DNA of 24,711 nucleotides from a virus: the IMG/VR virus record IMGVR_UViG_3300046543_000354, positions 1-24,711 of that record; one strand, 5' to 3'. Made by a program: the position numbers and the translations under genes. Shown piece after piece: positions 8,050-22,565 of the stretch. The notes below the pieces were generated by a model. The model worked only from the letters and a program-made list of their open reading frames with translations. It searched no databases and was not told the origin of the DNA. The number at the start of each line of letters is the position of its first letter. Within the stretch, counting starts at the first letter, position 1.

Positions 8050-8658
8050 TCACCTTCTGCGACGGCGACGGGCCCGGGTCGACTTCTTCACGTGGTGGCG
8101 GCCGAGGTGCGTGGTGCGGTGATGCCGAAGCCCGAACCGCGTGGTCTTGACGTGCTTGCGTCGCAGCCCGAAGTGGGTGGCCATGCGGTTGACGTGCTTC
8201 GGCCTGTTCCGGTGGGCACGGTGGCGGGCTGCGCGCTGGGCTGCCGCCTGGGTGGTGCGGTGGGCGGGGCTGGTGCGGTGCGCAACGATCCGTGCGTGCA
8301 CCCCGGCCCGGGGGTGTTTCCGGCCTTTGAGGCTGGCCGAGATTTTGGCGCGGGTGGCCGCCGACAGCCGGTGGCCTGGGTGGTGGCGGCCTTTGAGTTT
8401 CGCCGAGATTTTCGCCCTCGCGGCGGACGAGAGTTTGTGGCCCTTGTGGTGGCGGCCCTTCAACCGTGCGGCGATCTTCGCCCGGGTCGCCGACGAAACC
8501 ACATGCCCCTTGTGGTGCCTGCCCTTCAGCGCCTTCGCGATCCGGGCCCGAGTGGTCGCCGAAATCTTGTGGCCCTTGTGCGGATGCTTCTTGCCCTTCA
8601 TCCGCGCGGAGAGCTTGGCCCGGGTCGCGGCCGACACCACACGCTTGCGGCGCGCCAC
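8050..8658 (-). CDS. Tandem NUMOD3-like repeat protein, highly basic, no nuclease domain
   Basis: This 202-residue protein has no Asp or Glu at all and is dominated by Arg, Lys and His. Residues 7-119 are five tandem copies of a 22-residue unit (first copy 24), consensus LSAATRAKISAxLKGRHHKGH. This matches the NUMOD3 motif, a DNA-binding module known from homing endonucleases, but no GIY-YIG or HNH catalytic part is present. The rest is Ala/Arg/His-rich with two FGLR phrases (HFGLRRKHVK, RFGLRHHRTT) and ends in RARRRRRR, like a histone or protamine tail. GTG start four bases before the end context of the connector gene's stop (TAG at 8664-8662), so coupling is likely. GC at third positions is high throughout, supporting real coding. 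DNA or RNA binding is likely; the biological role is unknown. It sits among head-tail joining genes. Confidence 0.8.
   Translation of the reverse strand: MARRKRVVSAATRAKLSARMKGKKHPHKGHKISATTRARIAKALKGRHHKGHVVSSATRAKIAARLKGRHHKGHKLSSAARAKISAKLKGRHHPGHRLSAATRAKISASLKGRKHPRAGVHARIVAHRTSPAHRTTQAAAQRAARHRAHRNRPKHVNRMATHFGLRRKHVKTTRFGLRHHRTTHLGRHHVKKSTRARRRRRR
8302..8640 (-). repeat. Five tandem ~66-bp coding repeats (NUMOD3-like units)
   Basis: The unit encodes 22 residues with constant S..(T/A)RA(K/R) and KG(R/K) positions and variable third codon bases. Units begin at residues 7, 31, 53, 75 and 97 of the host protein. Synonymous differences between units suggest an old, selected expansion rather than a fresh slippage event. 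Confidence 0.85.
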
Positions 8659-16037: not shown

Positions 16038-17533
16038 GGGTCACCCCCTTGCATGATCGGGAACCCGCCGATGGTCCGCGGCGCCGCCACAGTTGCCGTG
16101 CCAGCGGCGGCAGGGTCCAGAGGACGCGCAACTGGAGTCGGCGCCGGGAAGTGAAAGCGGGCCTCATTGCCCAGGTTGATCAACAAATATCTGAGGCTGT
16201 CGGGTGCGTGGTCCTCCGCCTTCGTGTCGGCGTCCTCCGGGTCACCCGACGTGGCGTGCGGCAGCGCGGGCAGGGTGCGGACCAGTTCGGTGCACGTCGT
16301 GAAGACATGCAGCAGCGGGCAGGTGTCCCAGCCTGCCGCCCGGTGGTGGGCGCAGGCGGGGGCTTCGGCGAGGTAGGAGTGGACGCGCTGCCAGCCGGGC
16401 ACGCGTCCGCCCTTGCCCGCCGGGGTGAGGGGTACGCCGTTCTCGGCGTACACGGTCGCCACGGGCTTGGCGTCGCCGCGGGTCGCCCACATCGCGTCGT
16501 CGCCATACCGGGCTGCAACATGCTCGCCAGCACTTTCGGCGGCCAGGATCCGCTGCGCTTGGGCTTGTTCGCCGACCTGGGTGGCGTACAGCTCGCGGTA
16601 GATCCAGACCCGGCCGTCCTCGTCCTGCGCACCCCACAGCACGCACCAGGGGGCGGTGTAGCCCCAGTCGATGCCGTTGTACCGGGTGAGCGTCGAGGGC
16701 AGCGCCATCGGGGGGACGGTGTGGCGGTCGTGACGCCACTCAGGGAAGACCATTCCGGCGAACTGGTCCCAGTCGCCGTCGCGCATCGCCGCACGCCGCT
16801 GCGGGTCGGGGATCGCGTCGAGGCGGCGGGCATAGCCGTCATCCAAGTGCGGGTTGTCGGTGGCCTTGGCCTGCACGAAACGCACCGTCAGCCCCTGTTC
16901 GTCGGCCACGATCCGCTGCCCGTGGCCGGTGCCGTCGATGTAGCGGGCCTTGACCTGGGCGTGCGAGGGGCCGCCCGGGTTGCAGGTGGAGCGGGTGCCA
17001 ATGACGGGGACGGTGCCGTCGGAGCGCAGCCGCTCAAACTTCAAAATGTCGACCACTCCGGGCGGCATGAGGGTGGCTTCGTCGACGAGGAGCAGCTGGT
17101 ACTCGCCGCCCTGCCTGCGGGAGGCGTCGACAAGGTTCTCCATGTAGCGGAAGCGGAACAGGGACCGGTTCGGGAAGCGCAGCTCCCTCTCGGTACCGTT
17201 CCAGGTCGCTCCCAGCCCGGCGGCGTACCCGTATTTGGCGAGGACCGGAAAGACGGATTCGGCGAGTTCGTCGTAGGTGCGGCGCACCAGGAGGACGCGC
17301 ATGCCGGGGTGCCGGGCGCAGGCCCGCAGGCCCTCCATGACGATCGCTACACTTTTTCCGCCACCCGCGGCGCCGCCGTACAGAACATCGTCTTCGATGG
17401 CGGCATGGAACTCCTCCTGCTGCGGGTGCGGCCGGTAGCCGAGGACGCCGAACACGTCCAGGCTGGCGAGGCGTACACCCTCGCGCCGGTCGACTTCGGC
17501 TTGTAGCTCACGCAGTCGGCGGAGCTTCTCCAC
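16025..17533 (-). CDS. Terminase large subunit (ATPase and nuclease)
   Basis: The motor protein that cuts and pumps DNA into the head. From the chosen GTG it has 502 residues: Walker A GGAAGGGKS at 53-61, Walker B LLLVDEA with Asp151/Glu152, a coupling motif in GTRSTCNPGG, then an RNase H-like nuclease part with NGIDWGYTAPWCVLWGA and the late acidic EDHAPDSLRYLLIN. The start is uncertain. The frame is open to a TTG at 17614, but that extension lies entirely within the small subunit gene; GTG at 17533 leaves a 26-base overlap. A TTG at 17545 is also possible. No strong ribosome site marks any of them, so coupling to the small subunit is likely. The product end is Pro/Ala-rich and overlaps the portal start. 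Confidence 0.93.
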   Translation of the reverse strand: MEKLRRLRELQAEVDRREGVRLASLDVFGVLGYRPHPQQEEFHAAIEDDVLYGGAAGGGKSVAIVMEGLRACARHPGMRVLLVRRTYDELAESVFPVLAKYGYAAGLGATWNGTERELRFPNRSLFRFRYMENLVDASRRQGGEYQLLLVDEATLMPPGVVDILKFERLRSDGTVPVIGTRSTCNPGGPSHAQVKARYIDGTGHGQRIVADEQGLTVRFVQAKATDNPHLDDGYARRLDAIPDPQRRAAMRDGDWDQFAGMVFPEWRHDRHTVPPMALPSTLTRYNGIDWGYTAPWCVLWGAQDEDGRVWIYRELYATQVGEQAQAQRILAAESAGEHVAARYGDDAMWATRGDAKPVATVYAENGVPLTPAGKGGRVPGWQRVHSYLAEAPACAHHRAAGWDTCPLLHVFTTCTELVRTLPALPHATSGDPEDADTKAEDHAPDSLRYLLINLGNEARFHFPAPTPVARPLDPAAAGTATVAAPRTIGGFPIMQGGDPWAL

Positions 17534-17969
17534 CTTCGCGAGCAAGATCGGCGAATGCGGCTGTATCTCGGAGTTGAGCTTCGAGCTGCTGAAGTTGGGC
17601 GTCGATGGCGTCAATGGTCAGCACCTCCAGCTTGATGGCGCTGTCCAGGCCGAGGAGCTTGGCCCGCCGATCCAAGATCTTCAGGCAGGTTTCTATAGCC
17701 CTGAGATCACCTTGGACAGCGGCACCCCACACGGCGGCCTGGAGACGGTCCAGCCGTAGCAGCTCCACTTCTCGGAGTTCCTCGGCCGACACCCGCTGCT
17801 CGACGATGTTTGCCTCAAGAGCACGGGTTACGTCCTTGCACGCTGCGCCGCGGTCGGAATAGCCGAGCCGATCGGCGATGCTCGTCCAGTCCATGCCGGC
17901 CAGGCGCAGCGTGATGGCGTCGGTGCGTCGTTTGGCGGTTACGGCCCGCCGGGCTTTGGATGCTGACAT
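17508..17969 (-). CDS. Terminase small subunit (DNA recognition)
   Basis: The protein has 153 residues and an ATG with GGGAAGG nine bases upstream. Residues about 14-58 form a helix-turn-helix (RRTDAITLRLAGMDWTSIAD, RLGYSDRGAACKDVTRALEA), and residues 60-110 form the oligomerising helices (LREVELLRLDRLQAAVWGAA, DLRAIETCLKILDRRAKLLG), the normal layout for TerS, which binds the packaging start site and loads the large subunit. The ending is Glu/Gln-rich. It sits directly before the large subunit with overlap. The N-terminal domain has a close paralogue two genes upstream (the gene at 19243-19590), about 47 percent identical over 58 gapless residues by hand count. Confidence 0.88.
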   Translation of the reverse strand: MSASKARRAVTAKRRTDAITLRLAGMDWTSIADRLGYSDRGAACKDVTRALEANIVEQRVSAEELREVELLRLDRLQAAVWGAAVQGDLRAIETCLKILDRRAKLLGLDSAIKLEVLTIDAIDAQLQQLEAQLRDTAAFADLAREGGEAPPTA

Positions 17970-17996: not shown

Positions 17997-19241
17997 TCAG
18001 GCGGTGAAGTCGTGTGCCTCGCCGGTTGATTGAAGGATCGGCTGTTCGCCGGTGTGTTCCTGAAATCTGCGGGCGATGACGTCGGCATACCGCGGATCGA
18101 GTTCGCTGATCCGGGCGCTACGGCCGGTGGTGTGGGCAGCGAGGAGTGTGGTGCCTGATCCGCCGAAGGGTTCGTATACGAGGCCGCCGGGCCGGCAGGA
18201 GTTGGCCAGGCAGCGGGTAACCAACTCGACCGGCTTCATGGTGGGGTGGTCTTCGCTTCGCGGCGGTTTGGGGATCAAGAGAACTGAGGTCTGCGCGTTG
18301 TCGCCGTACCAGCGATCGCCGCCGCGGCCCAGGCGACCCGAACCGGGCTCTGGGTCAGTGAACCCATACAAGATCGGTTCGTGACGGTAGTGGTAGTCGG
18401 ACCTGCCCAGGACCATCGCGTCTTTTACCCAGATGAGGTTCTGTCGCCACAGCCATCCGGCGTTGAGAAACGCCTGAGTGAAGGCGAGGGAGAGCGGGCC
18501 GGGCGGATGCGCGACGTACACCGGAGCGCCGGGCTTGAGGGCGACGGTGGCCGTCGCGAAGGCACCGGCTAGGAGGTCGGGCAAGGTGTCGGCACCGTCG
18601 TTGCGGATCGTGAGCGCGTCTCTGGTCTTGCCGACGTAGTCGACACCGTAGGGCGGGTCGGTCCACATCGCATCGCAGCGATCTCCGTCAAGCATTGCCT
18701 CGACGGCCGTGACATCGGTGCTGTCGCCGCAAAGGAGCCGGTGGCGTCCAAGAATCCATACGTCGCCGGGTTTCGACACCGGGGCGGATGGAGGTTCGGG
18801 TACATCATCGACGTCGGTCAAGGCCGGAGGGAGCTGCTGGATGCCGAGGAGGGCGTCGACGTCGTCTTGCGTGTAGCCGGTTCCTTCGTAGTCCTCGTCG
18901 AGATACGACAAGAGTTCGGCGAGCGCGTCGTTGTCGTAGGCGCCGAGCTCGGCCAGCTTGTTGTCGGCGAGGTTGATCCGGCGGGCGGTGGCGTCGTCGC
19001 AGGCCACGATTTCGCAGCGCGCGAGGTCGTGGCCTTCGGCTGTGAGGGCCTGCATCGTATGGTTGCCGGCCAGGACGGTGAGGGGTCCGTCGGGGATCTC
19101 GCGTACCACGAGGGAGCGGTATTGACCGTTCTTCCGCAGCGAGGTGCGGATGGCGTCGACGTCGCCTCGTTTTGCGTTGCCGGGGAACGGCGTGAGTTCG
19201 TCAATAGGGACATCGCGGGTTGCCACGTACCGCGCCCCCAC
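17997..19241 (-). CDS. ParB-like domain fused to DNA methyltransferase (class beta)
   Basis: The start is a GTG at 19241 with GGAGG five bases upstream inside the end of the previous gene; an in-frame ATG at 19427 lies within that gene and is rejected. The 414 residues begin with a ParB/sulfiredoxin-like domain, about 8-100 (VPIDELTPFPGNAKRGD, LTVLAGNHTMQAL, NLADNKLAELG). Then comes a methyltransferase with DPPY at 195-198 ahead of the SAM-binding FGGSGTT at 359-365, the order of the beta class, with HPTMKPVELVTRCLANS between. DPPY favours N6-adenine, though N4-cytosine cannot be excluded. No restriction enzyme partner is visible, so it is probably an orphan phage methylase that protects DNA from host restriction or marks it for packaging. 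Confidence 0.9.
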   Translation of the reverse strand: MGARYVATRDVPIDELTPFPGNAKRGDVDAIRTSLRKNGQYRSLVVREIPDGPLTVLAGNHTMQALTAEGHDLARCEIVACDDATARRINLADNKLAELGAYDNDALAELLSYLDEDYEGTGYTQDDVDALLGIQQLPPALTDVDDVPEPPSAPVSKPGDVWILGRHRLLCGDSTDVTAVEAMLDGDRCDAMWTDPPYGVDYVGKTRDALTIRNDGADTLPDLLAGAFATATVALKPGAPVYVAHPPGPLSLAFTQAFLNAGWLWRQNLIWVKDAMVLGRSDYHYRHEPILYGFTDPEPGSGRLGRGGDRWYGDNAQTSVLLIPKPPRSEDHPTMKPVELVTRCLANSCRPGGLVYEPFGGSGTTLLAAHTTGRSARISELDPRYADVIARRFQEHTGEQPILQSTGEAHDFTA

Positions 19242-19242
19242 G

Positions 19243-19590
19243 TCAGCCTCCGTCCTCGGTCTTGATCCAAGATGCGGGCAGCGGCGGCGGTCCGGGTGGC
19301 GGTTCGGGCGCCGGTGCCGGTTCGGGGGTGCAGTCGCAGCCGGGCAGGGTGGCCGGGTTGGGCGCCGTGCAGGTTTTGGCATGGATGAGGGCTGCTGCGT
19401 CCATACCGATGGCGTGCTGCTCGGCAATGTTCATTTCCAGGACTCGGCAGAAGTCCTTGCTGGCGGCGTTGGGGCTGCTGTAGCCGAGTTCCTGGTAGAT
19501 CTCTTCGTAGGAGCGTCCGTCGATGCGGTACTGGATGAGGCGGGTGCGGCGCTCGGCGAGTTCGGCCTTGCGGGCGCGGATGACGGCCAC
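19243..19590 (-). CDS. TerS-like HTH domain joined to a shared Cys/His C-terminal module
   Basis: A GTG with GAGGAGGG six bases upstream starts a 115-residue protein. Residues 1-58 align without gaps to the N-terminus of the small terminase (both have RRT, LGYS, AA.KD, LE.NI.EQ), about 27 of 58 identical by hand. The oligomerising helices of TerS are missing. Residues 59-115 instead match the C-terminus of the gene immediately upstream: HAIG.DAA.L.HAKTCTAP and LPGCDCTPEP, then a Pro-rich tail. The His and Cys residues could bind metal. It is transcribed just ahead of the methylase and terminase genes. Possible roles are binding the same DNA site as TerS, or modifying TerS rings; both are inference. 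It may also be a recombination product without function. Confidence 0.8.
   Translation of the reverse strand: MAVIRARKAELAERRTRLIQYRIDGRSYEEIYQELGYSSPNAASKDFCRVLEMNIAEQHAIGMDAAALIHAKTCTAPNPATLPGCDCTPEPAPAPEPPPGPPPLPASWIKTEDGG
19316..19344. repeat. 29-base exact direct repeat, copy 1
   Basis: Identical to 19659-19687 and in the same coding frame, spanning the GCDCTPEP part of the shared module. An exact run this long amid otherwise diverged sequence suggests recent recombination or conversion between the two genes. Confidence 0.85.
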
Positions 19591-19603
19591 GGCGTCCCTC
19601 CTC

Positions 19604-21081: not shown

Positions 21082-21867
21082 TCAGGTAGCGGCTGGCGTG
21101 AGCGTAGGCAGCGCCGGGATCTGCTCAGCGAGCCAGCCGTCGGGCTCGGCGGTGAAGTGCGGCGCGGCGACTGTGTCCCACCACGAGCGCATCGCGACGA
21201 CCGTCTCCAACTGGCGGGACCGCTTGTGCGTGAAGGTGATCTCCCGAGGCCCGGTCTCGCGGACCGCGACACGGCCCCGCTTGCAGCCGTCGGAGTAGTC
21301 GTTCCAGTTAATGCCCTTCTCTGAGCACAGGAGTTCCTGCATGCCGCCGCCGGATACGCCGTGCAAGCACCGGGGCGAGAAGTGGGCTTGTGCGGCCATG
21401 CTGACGCTGTTGCGGACCGCGTCCCGCTGGCGCCATACGAAGTAGTTGGCGACCTCGACAGGGTCGGCGATCGTGAAAGCGCGCGCGTCGAACAGCGCCC
21501 GACGGCCGGGACGTCGCTCGTTGAGGACGGCAGTCGCCAGCGAGGCGGCGATGGACAATTGCTTGCCGAGGACCCCGCCGAACCAGGGCTCGGTGTTGTG
21601 GCTGCCGAAGTCGGTGAAGAGCACGCTGATCTCGTCGGACTGCGTGTACGCGAACCGAGCCCCGGCGATCTCGGTGCAGAGGACTTCGGCGACGGCGTCC
21701 ATGTCGGCCATGAAGGATTCGTCGAACGGCTTGGCCGCGCCACGCAGGTAGCTGTGGAAGGCGCGGCCGTCGACCCGAAGGATCGAGTACGTGCGGCGCG
21801 GCAGGAACGCCCGGGTGGTCGCCTCGTACCGTTTCATGCGGTCACCGAGTGCGGTGGAGTCACTCAT
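21082..21867 (-). CDS. Thg1-like 3'-5' nucleotidyltransferase (tRNA-His guanylyltransferase family)
   Basis: The enzyme family adds nucleotides to RNA 5' ends, in the reverse direction to other polymerases; bacterial Thg1-like proteins repair 5'-truncated tRNAs. This 261-residue protein starts at an ATG overlapping the previous stop (ATGA). It has the two metal-binding motifs: Asp33 in ILRVDGRAFHSYL and Asp78/Glu79 in FAYTQSDEISVLF. Further family marks are KQLSIAASLATAVL, YFVWRQRDAVRNSVSMAAQA and MQELLCSEKGINWNDY. The RNSVSM form, in place of the eukaryotic HINNLYNT-type motif, points to the bacterial Thg1-like branch. All catalytic carboxylates are present, so it should be active. It ends the accessory operon, just before a terminator. 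No tRNA gene is seen in the window. Confidence 0.88.
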   Translation of the reverse strand: MSDSTALGDRMKRYEATTRAFLPRRTYSILRVDGRAFHSYLRGAAKPFDESFMADMDAVAEVLCTEIAGARFAYTQSDEISVLFTDFGSHNTEPWFGGVLGKQLSIAASLATAVLNERRPGRRALFDARAFTIADPVEVANYFVWRQRDAVRNSVSMAAQAHFSPRCLHGVSGGGMQELLCSEKGINWNDYSDGCKRGRVAVRETGPREITFTHKRSRQLETVVAMRSWWDTVAAPHFTAEPDGWLAEQIPALPTLTPAAT

Positions 21868-22565
21868 GCCGCGACCCCCGCATCCCGCTCCAGGACGTCC
21901 TGCTGCGCGAGGCGGAGCTGCCGCCAAGCCGCGTAACCGTCCCACTCGGCTGCGCAGTTCGGGCAGCGCACGAACGACGACGCGACTGTGGCGGTGAGCG
22001 GCATCCCGCACAGCCCGCCTTCAAGCTGAACGGGGCAGGGGCCGATCTGGACGCGGCCGGGCCGCCGTTCGGCGCTGAGTGCGGCGGTGGTTTCGGAGTG
22101 GAGGCGGCGGATGTCGTCGATGTCCTGGCCGATGCTGTCGTACTGCTCGCAGGCGCGTTGCAGGTTGATCACAAGGAAGTTGATGTGGACGGGGACGGCT
22201 TGGGCGGGGCTACCAGCCCAAGTCCCGATCCGACGGCCGAGCGCTTGGCGCCACGCGTCCTCGATAGCGGCGAGTCGGGCTGCTACGCCGCCGGGTCCGG
22301 TGAGAGTAAGCACTTCGAGGCGCGGCGGTATCGGCGGCACACGGCTGCCGGTGGTGGCGGTGTCGGGGCGGCGGGCGCCGCGCATGAGGGTCGAGGTGCG
22401 GTTCAAGGCGACGAACAGGTTGGGGAGTTCGGCGAGGCGCTTGGCGGTGCGGGCTTCGCAGGGGCGGCAGGCTTGGCGGCCGGTTTCGGCTTCGTCGACC
22501 CAGAGGTCTTTGCCGCACGCGGTGCAGGCAGGCCACGTGTAGTCGTCGGCGGGGGCGTCGTGCAT
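21864..22565 (-). CDS. Double zinc-ribbon protein, 233 aa, function unknown
   Basis: An ATG with AGGAG eight bases upstream starts this protein. The N-terminus has four Cys (14, 17, 33, 36: CTAC and CRPC), a typical zinc ribbon. The C-terminus has a second set (PCPV, LCGMP, RCPNC) in the zinc-ribbon form seen in phage and plasmid proteins. The middle, about 60-160, is helical (LPNLFVALNRTSTLMRGARR, FLVINLQRACEQYDSIGQDI). Proteins with this two-ribbon plan and length are common in Streptomyces phages but have no assigned function. Nucleic acid or protein binding is likely. Its stop overlaps the Thg1-like gene's ATG, so the two are co-translated and may work together. Confidence 0.75.
   Translation of the reverse strand: MHDAPADDYTWPACTACGKDLWVDEAETGRQACRPCEARTAKRLAELPNLFVALNRTSTLMRGARRPDTATTGSRVPPIPPRLEVLTLTGPGGVAARLAAIEDAWRQALGRRIGTWAGSPAQAVPVHINFLVINLQRACEQYDSIGQDIDDIRRLHSETTAALSAERRPGRVQIGPCPVQLEGGLCGMPLTATVASSFVRCPNCAAEWDGYAAWRQLRLAQQDVLERDAGVAA

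What the first reader, a model, noticed from the sequence alone, without database searches (positions are those of the whole stretch)
19243..19590. Second copy of the small-terminase HTH, fused to a foreign module
The first 58 residues align without a gap to TerS (about 27 identities by hand), yet the TerS assembly helices are replaced by a Cys/His module shared with the upstream gene. A protein with the DNA-reading part of TerS but not its ring-forming part could compete for or pre-mark the packaging site, or cap TerS rings. It is expressed just before the methylase and TerS. I know of no described TerS decoy of this build.
Basis: partly seen in the sequence, partly recalled or inferred. Interest (0 to 1): 0.75.

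Follow-up and report, generated by a model that had tools for sequence, protein, structure and literature searches.

The report
Leftover TerS head fused to neighbour's tail
A small phage gene joins the DNA-binding front of a packaging protein from another phage lineage to the back of the neighbouring gene's protein; it looks like a seam left when phages swapped DNA, and nothing found makes it a decoy of the phage's own packaging protein.

Summary
The 115-aa ORF (19590-19243, minus strand) has an ungapped TerS-type helix-turn-helix in residues 1-58 (27/58 identities to the resident TerS). Its C-terminal module is shared with the upstream gene (24/31 identities), and the TerS helices after the HTH are missing. 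The reading as a second copy and decoy of the resident TerS is not supported. The HTH belongs to another TerS lineage: joining it with the resident TerS is rejected (AU p = 9e-6), and its nearest kin are TerS proteins of other phages (56-58% identity). In one of these (L152) that TerS starts 14 bases after an upstream-gene homologue, the slot the chimera fills here. The C-terminal module is no recent copy either. The resident TerS itself looks mosaic. I therefore read the gene as a recombination seam: the HTH of a displaced TerS, capped in frame by the 3' end of an upstream-type gene when a methylase-TerS cassette entered. No independent relative carries the chimera; its only other copy lies in a contig identical to the window over 7 kb. 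A TerS HTH alone binds DNA very weakly elsewhere (PMC4737164). A function of the intact, translatable protein remains open.

The parts
19243..19590 (-). chimeric gene, 115 aa (P0001)
19417..19590 (-). TerS-type HTH half (residues 1-58), of a TerS lineage other than the resident one
   Evidence: nearest L152 57%, L047 56-58%, L044 49%
19243..19416 (-). C-terminal half (residues 59-115): H-x10-HxxxC-x10-CxC module, Pro-rich linker, LPASW tail; end of an upstream-type (P3) gene. Keeps HxxxC...CxC but lacks the CxxC and the C of CxxH
19591..19603 (-). spacer GAGGAGGGACGCC between upstream gene and chimera, with Shine-Dalgarno; same layout as the upstream gene-to-TerS spacer in L152
19604..20023 (-). 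upstream gene (P3), 139 aa: CxxC, CxxH, HxxxC, CxC; widespread in phages and prophages of Streptomyces and relatives, often next to terminase or portal genes
17997..19241 (-). DNA methylase (ParB-like N-terminal part + N6/N4 methylase), start one base after the chimera's stop; its likely RBS (GGAGG) is coded by the chimera's last codons
17508..17969 (-). resident TerS, 153 aa; HTH (17969-17796) resembles methylase-linked TerS, body (17795-17508) resembles TerS directly behind P3
16025..17614 (-). TerL (open frame; true start may lie inside)

Best explanation
The gene is a recombination seam that stayed in frame. In relatives the P3 gene is followed directly by TerS and TerL. In this lineage a methylase-TerS cassette entered that spot. 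What was left of an older, different TerS (its start site, ribosome-binding site and HTH) became joined in frame to the 3' end of a P3-type gene, whose last codons carry the ribosome-binding site of the methylase. The resident TerS, with a methylase-linked type of HTH on a P3-linked type of body, would be the other side of the same exchange. The product would be a small protein with a weak DNA-binding HTH, no ring-forming body and one possible metal site, without a dedicated role in packaging; keeping the frame open may mainly serve translation into the methylase. Shown: domain make-up, lineage difference of the HTH, divergence of the C-terminal half from its neighbour, synteny, absence elsewhere. 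Inferred: order of events, lack of function, translational coupling.
For: Relatives L002/L034, L009, L126, L006 and L152 have P3 directly followed by TerS (TerL next in all but L006, where it was not detected) with no chimera. L152 has a TerS with the chimera's type of HTH 14 bases behind P3. HTH tree: chimera with L152, L047, L044 (94/84); chimera plus resident TerS rejected, p-AU 8.9e-6. Resident TerS: body nearest L126/L002/L009 (60-62%; clade 96/90 starred), HTH nearest L053-L055/L043 (68-74%) against 50-52% for L126/L002/L009. Methylase directly before TerS recurs in L051-L057, L059 and L066-L070. Essentially all other carriers of the C-terminal module are P3-type proteins. The junction falls at the end of the HTH and at the H of CxxH. 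No second chimera in IMG/VR, phage records or 394 Streptomyces genomes.
Against: No phage with P3 directly before this methylase, the expected donor, was found. The HTH mosaic of the resident TerS is suggestive only (p-AU 0.083). The frame is open, has a good ribosome-binding site, and keeps all invariant Cys/His residues of the module and all invariant HTH residues, which would also fit a selected function. The 33-codon module differs from the neighbour by 10 silent and 6 amino-acid changes, as expected under selection, though the selection may have acted before the fusion.
Confidence: 0.55

Rival explanations
1. The chimera is a working DNA-binding regulator: its HTH binds an operator in the late region and the metal module steadies or pairs it, so that it tunes expression of the packaging operon.
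For: Confident HTH model whose best solved match is the DNA-binding domain of the regulator GcrA (prob 0.97, but E 0.96); intact metal residues; good ribosome-binding site.
Against: No relative keeps it. No operator or partner known. Generic HTH similarity proves little.
Confidence: 0.2
2. The chimera tethers a TerS-type HTH to the (unknown) binding partner of the P3 protein through the shared module and LPxxW tail, giving the phage a second DNA-reading head near the packaging machinery.
For: The fusion keeps the whole P3 C-terminus down to LPxxW. P3 lies beside terminase or portal genes of several unrelated families.
Against: P3 is followed by an endolysin in some phages (L004, L014), so the link with packaging is not strict. 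The chimera lacks the CxxC and the Cys of CxxH, so one of the two candidate metal sites is gone. Single occurrence.
Confidence: 0.13
3. One reading: TerS decoy or antagonist. The chimera competes with TerS for the packaging site, pre-marks it or caps TerS rings.
For: Ungapped HTH homology, 27/58; missing body. A TerS-like DNA-binding protein that binds TerS and changes its specificity is known in phage-inducible islands (Rpp, PMC6739421).
Against: HTH of another lineage with a different recognition region. Isolated TerS HTH binds very weakly (PMC4737164). The TerS helices after the HTH are absent. Not conserved.
Confidence: 0.07
4. Assembly artefact: a chimeric contig.
For: Rare arrangement; the only other copy is in an identical stretch.
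Against: Two contigs that differ from each other upstream (94% identity and unaligned stretches) share the junction exactly; both halves are too diverged from the neighbouring genes to be a mis-join of them.
Confidence: 0.04

Closest known systems
phrog_645 (annotated 'Rnase E'; holds small terminases of actinobacteriophages)
   Same: HTH of residues 6-57 matches (8.8e-9)
   Different: the part of the family protein after the HTH (profile 70-130) is missing
P3-type family of Streptomyces phages (no significant Pfam, PHROG or NCBIfam match)
   Same: C-terminal module with HxxxC...CxC and LPxxW tail
   Different: the N-terminal half with CxxC and the Cys of CxxH is replaced by the HTH
Rpp of E. 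coli phage-inducible islands (PMC6739421)
   Same: small protein with a TerS-like DNA-binding domain acting beside TerS
   Different: Rpp sits on a satellite and forms a proven complex with phage TerS; here no such contact is known and no body or dimer surface is evident
Isolated DNA-binding domain of phage SF6 small terminase (PMC4737164)
   Same: a TerS HTH without its ring-forming body
   Different: an engineered fragment; it bound DNA weakly and without sequence specificity
Mosaic or hybrid genes at phage recombination seams (general phage knowledge)
   Same: novel joint at a domain border next to a cassette of different ancestry
   Different: here the joint gave an intact, translatable fusion

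Membership tests
Small terminase (TerS) | N-terminal HTH related to TerS | tested here: met
Small terminase (TerS) | central helical body for ring assembly | tested here: not met
   helices 89-105 and 119-145 of TerS absent
Small terminase (TerS) | gene directly before TerL | tested here: not met
   methylase and the resident TerS lie between
Copy of the resident TerS HTH | nearest relative is the resident TerS | tested here: not met
   p-AU 8.9e-6 against; L152, L047, L044 nearer
P3-type family | C-terminal HxxxC...PGCDCTPE module and LPxxW tail | tested here: met
P3-type family | N-terminal CxxC and CxxH | tested here: not met
   absent in residues 1-58
TerS decoy or antagonist (Rpp-like) | binds TerS and alters its DNA specificity | not testable with these tools
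   needs binding assays
TerS decoy or antagonist (Rpp-like) | kept across relatives that have the target | tested here: not met
   absent from L002/L034, L006, L009, L126, L152 and the methylase-TerS phages

The most novel reading that the evidence does not exclude
A phage has made a bipartite packaging accessory by putting a TerS-type HTH of foreign specificity onto the docking module of a terminase-neighbour protein, so that a second DNA-reading head is brought to the packaging machine without entering the TerS ring.
Probability: 0.1. Interest if true: 0.65.

Novelty: new member of a known kind. Interest (0 to 1): 0.27.

Why it matters
It shows how a cassette swap at the terminase locus can leave an in-frame hybrid gene, and that the border between HTH and body of TerS is a place where phages appear to exchange DNA-reading heads. 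It also points to an unnamed, conserved Cys/His protein family (P3) beside terminase and portal genes of phages of Streptomyces and relatives. As a TerS decoy it would matter more, but the evidence does not point there.

Tried and rejected
Tandem duplication of P3 and TerS within this phage: rejected as a recent event, because silent-site agreement of the module with the neighbour (17/27 same codon) is no better than with P3 genes of other phages, and the HTH is of another lineage. Relation to ribosomal protein L22 (TIGR01044, 25.5 bits, E 1.2e-5, far below the cut-off of 73.65): found for the chimera alone and for none of 23 relatives of either half, so taken as chance. Conservation from the sibling contig L001: not independent, zero differences from P3 through portal. 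Other fusions of the module: none seen among the 49 distinct carriers found. Apparent two-segment hits in L009 and L002 were two adjacent genes. PDB searches by sequence and a fold search with the TerS model gave nothing usable; for the chimera only HTH matches, with G20C small terminase at E 4.4. No defence-system match for chimera or P3. A first mixed alignment (A5) was misaligned and not used.

Full report
What is there. The ORF at 19590-19243 (minus strand, GTG start, 115 aa) lies between the P3 gene (20023-19604) and a DNA methylase (19241-17997), followed by TerS (17969-17508) and TerL. The window is an IMG/VR virus record of 24,711 bases; its relatives are phages and prophages of Streptomyces and related genera.

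Observation. Residues 1-58 align to the resident TerS without a gap, 27/58 identities; the local alignment is 26/55, E 2e-13 for two sequences. Both proteins hit phrog_645, the chimera only over its HTH. Relatives of the resident protein are annotated small terminases of actinobacteriophages, and the resident gene sits directly before TerL, so TerS is a sound name for it. The C-terminal half matches P3 with 24/31 identities. Structure prediction gives the same three N-terminal helices in both proteins; the chimera's third helix runs through the junction to residue 73 and ends, while TerS continues with helices to 85, 89-105 and 119-145.

Origin of the HTH. Against 21 TerS-type HTHs the chimera is nearest to L152 and L047 (56-57%, BLOSUM62 score 155 each) and L044 (145); the resident TerS scores 114. 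In a tree of 26 HTHs the chimera groups with these three (94/84), and a tree that joins chimera and resident TerS is rejected (p-AU 8.9e-6). It is therefore not a copy of this phage's TerS HTH. In L152 such a TerS starts 14 bases behind a P3 gene, with a spacer (GAGAGGAGGCGGCG) much like the one before the chimera (GAGGAGGGACGCC). The chimera thus sits in the slot where relatives have TerS.

Origin of the C-terminal half. P3-type proteins were found in dozens of contigs. Of the 49 distinct carriers of the module, one is the chimera. Of the others, nearly all show an N-terminal CxxC; the exceptions are L130 (cut by the contig end) and L145 and L155 (differently spaced cysteines). The chimera begins at the H of CxxH, so it lacks the CxxC and the Cys of CxxH but keeps HxxxC-x10-CxC and the LPxxW tail. 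Codon agreement with the neighbouring P3 at identical residues is 17/27 (0.63), within the range seen against P3 genes of other phages (0.29-0.84), so it is not a fresh copy.

The resident TerS. Its body groups with TerS of L126, L002 and L009 (96/90 starred), phages in which TerS lies directly behind P3. Its HTH is nearer to methylase-linked TerS of L053-L055 and to L043 (68-74%) than to L126/L002/L009 (50-52%). Holding it with the latter three in the HTH tree is not rejected (p-AU 0.083), so the mosaic is suggestive. Methylase directly followed by TerS is a recurring pair. These facts fit a cassette [P3 3' end, methylase, TerS HTH] that entered an older P3-TerS locus near the border of HTH and body. 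The old HTH stayed behind P3 and was capped by the incoming P3 end. The chimera's last codons carry GGAGG just before the methylase start (TGACGTG), which may be why the end of a P3 gene is kept there. No donor with P3 directly before this methylase was found.

Conservation. The only other copy is in IMGVR_UViG_3300047317_000373 (L001; junction 31-mer), identical to the window from P3 through portal with zero differences but different upstream. This argues against an assembly error but is not independent evidence of selection. Five relatives with P3 beside TerS and all methylase-TerS phages found lack it, as do 394 Streptomyces genomes searched and the public phage records. The collection scans are pattern-based and can miss distant forms.

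Function. The decoy idea needs binding to the same DNA or to TerS. The HTH is of another lineage with a different recognition region (SPNAASKDF against DRGAACKDV), the helices after the HTH are absent, and the isolated HTH of SF6 small terminase binds DNA weakly and without specificity (PMC4737164). A small TerS-like DNA-binding protein that acts on TerS is already known, Rpp (PMC6739421), so the concept would not be wholly new. I rate an intact but dispensable seam product most likely. The open frame, the ribosome-binding site and the intact Cys/His residues leave room for a regulator or a tether to the partner of P3; the latter is my most novel reading. Which of these holds cannot be told from sequence.

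Noticed in passing
19243-19590 (chimera, residues 6-74): Weak match to ribosomal protein L22 (TIGR01044, E 1.2e-5, 25.5 bits against a cut-off of 73.65) spanning the junction; none of 23 relatives of either half shows it.
   Followed up: partly
21082-22011, minus strand: tRNA-His guanylyltransferase (Thg1) homologue in the phage, phrog_4717 E 2e-68, Pfam Thg1 E 4e-20.
   Followed up: no
8050-8658, minus strand: 202-aa Lys/Arg/His-rich protein made of repeated units like 'SSATRAKIAARLKGRHHKGHK', reminiscent of NUMOD3-type DNA-binding repeats without a nuclease, among head genes.
   Followed up: no
L003:6867-9587 and L007:6906-9434: TerL genes interrupted by about 1.2 kb in-frame inserts at two different sites (after TerL positions 290 and 88), probably inteins.
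   Followed up: no
L053-L056: Two TerS-like proteins in one locus: one right behind the methylase, a second, diverged one 2-4 kb further on.
   Followed up: no
L008:928-4107 (similar ORFs in L005, L017, L018, L129, L138, L148): ORF of over 1000 aa directly behind P3 that matches portal, Nudix hydrolase and minor-head/head-morphogenesis families in one chain.
   Followed up: no
about 20297 in the window, against L001: Sharp mosaic border: from here through portal the two contigs are identical; beyond it they differ, with unaligned stretches and a 94% stretch.
   Followed up: partly
17508-17614: The TerL reading frame is open about 107 bases into the 3' end of TerS, and the same overlap is seen in L002, L009 and L126; true TerL start unclear.
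   Followed up: no
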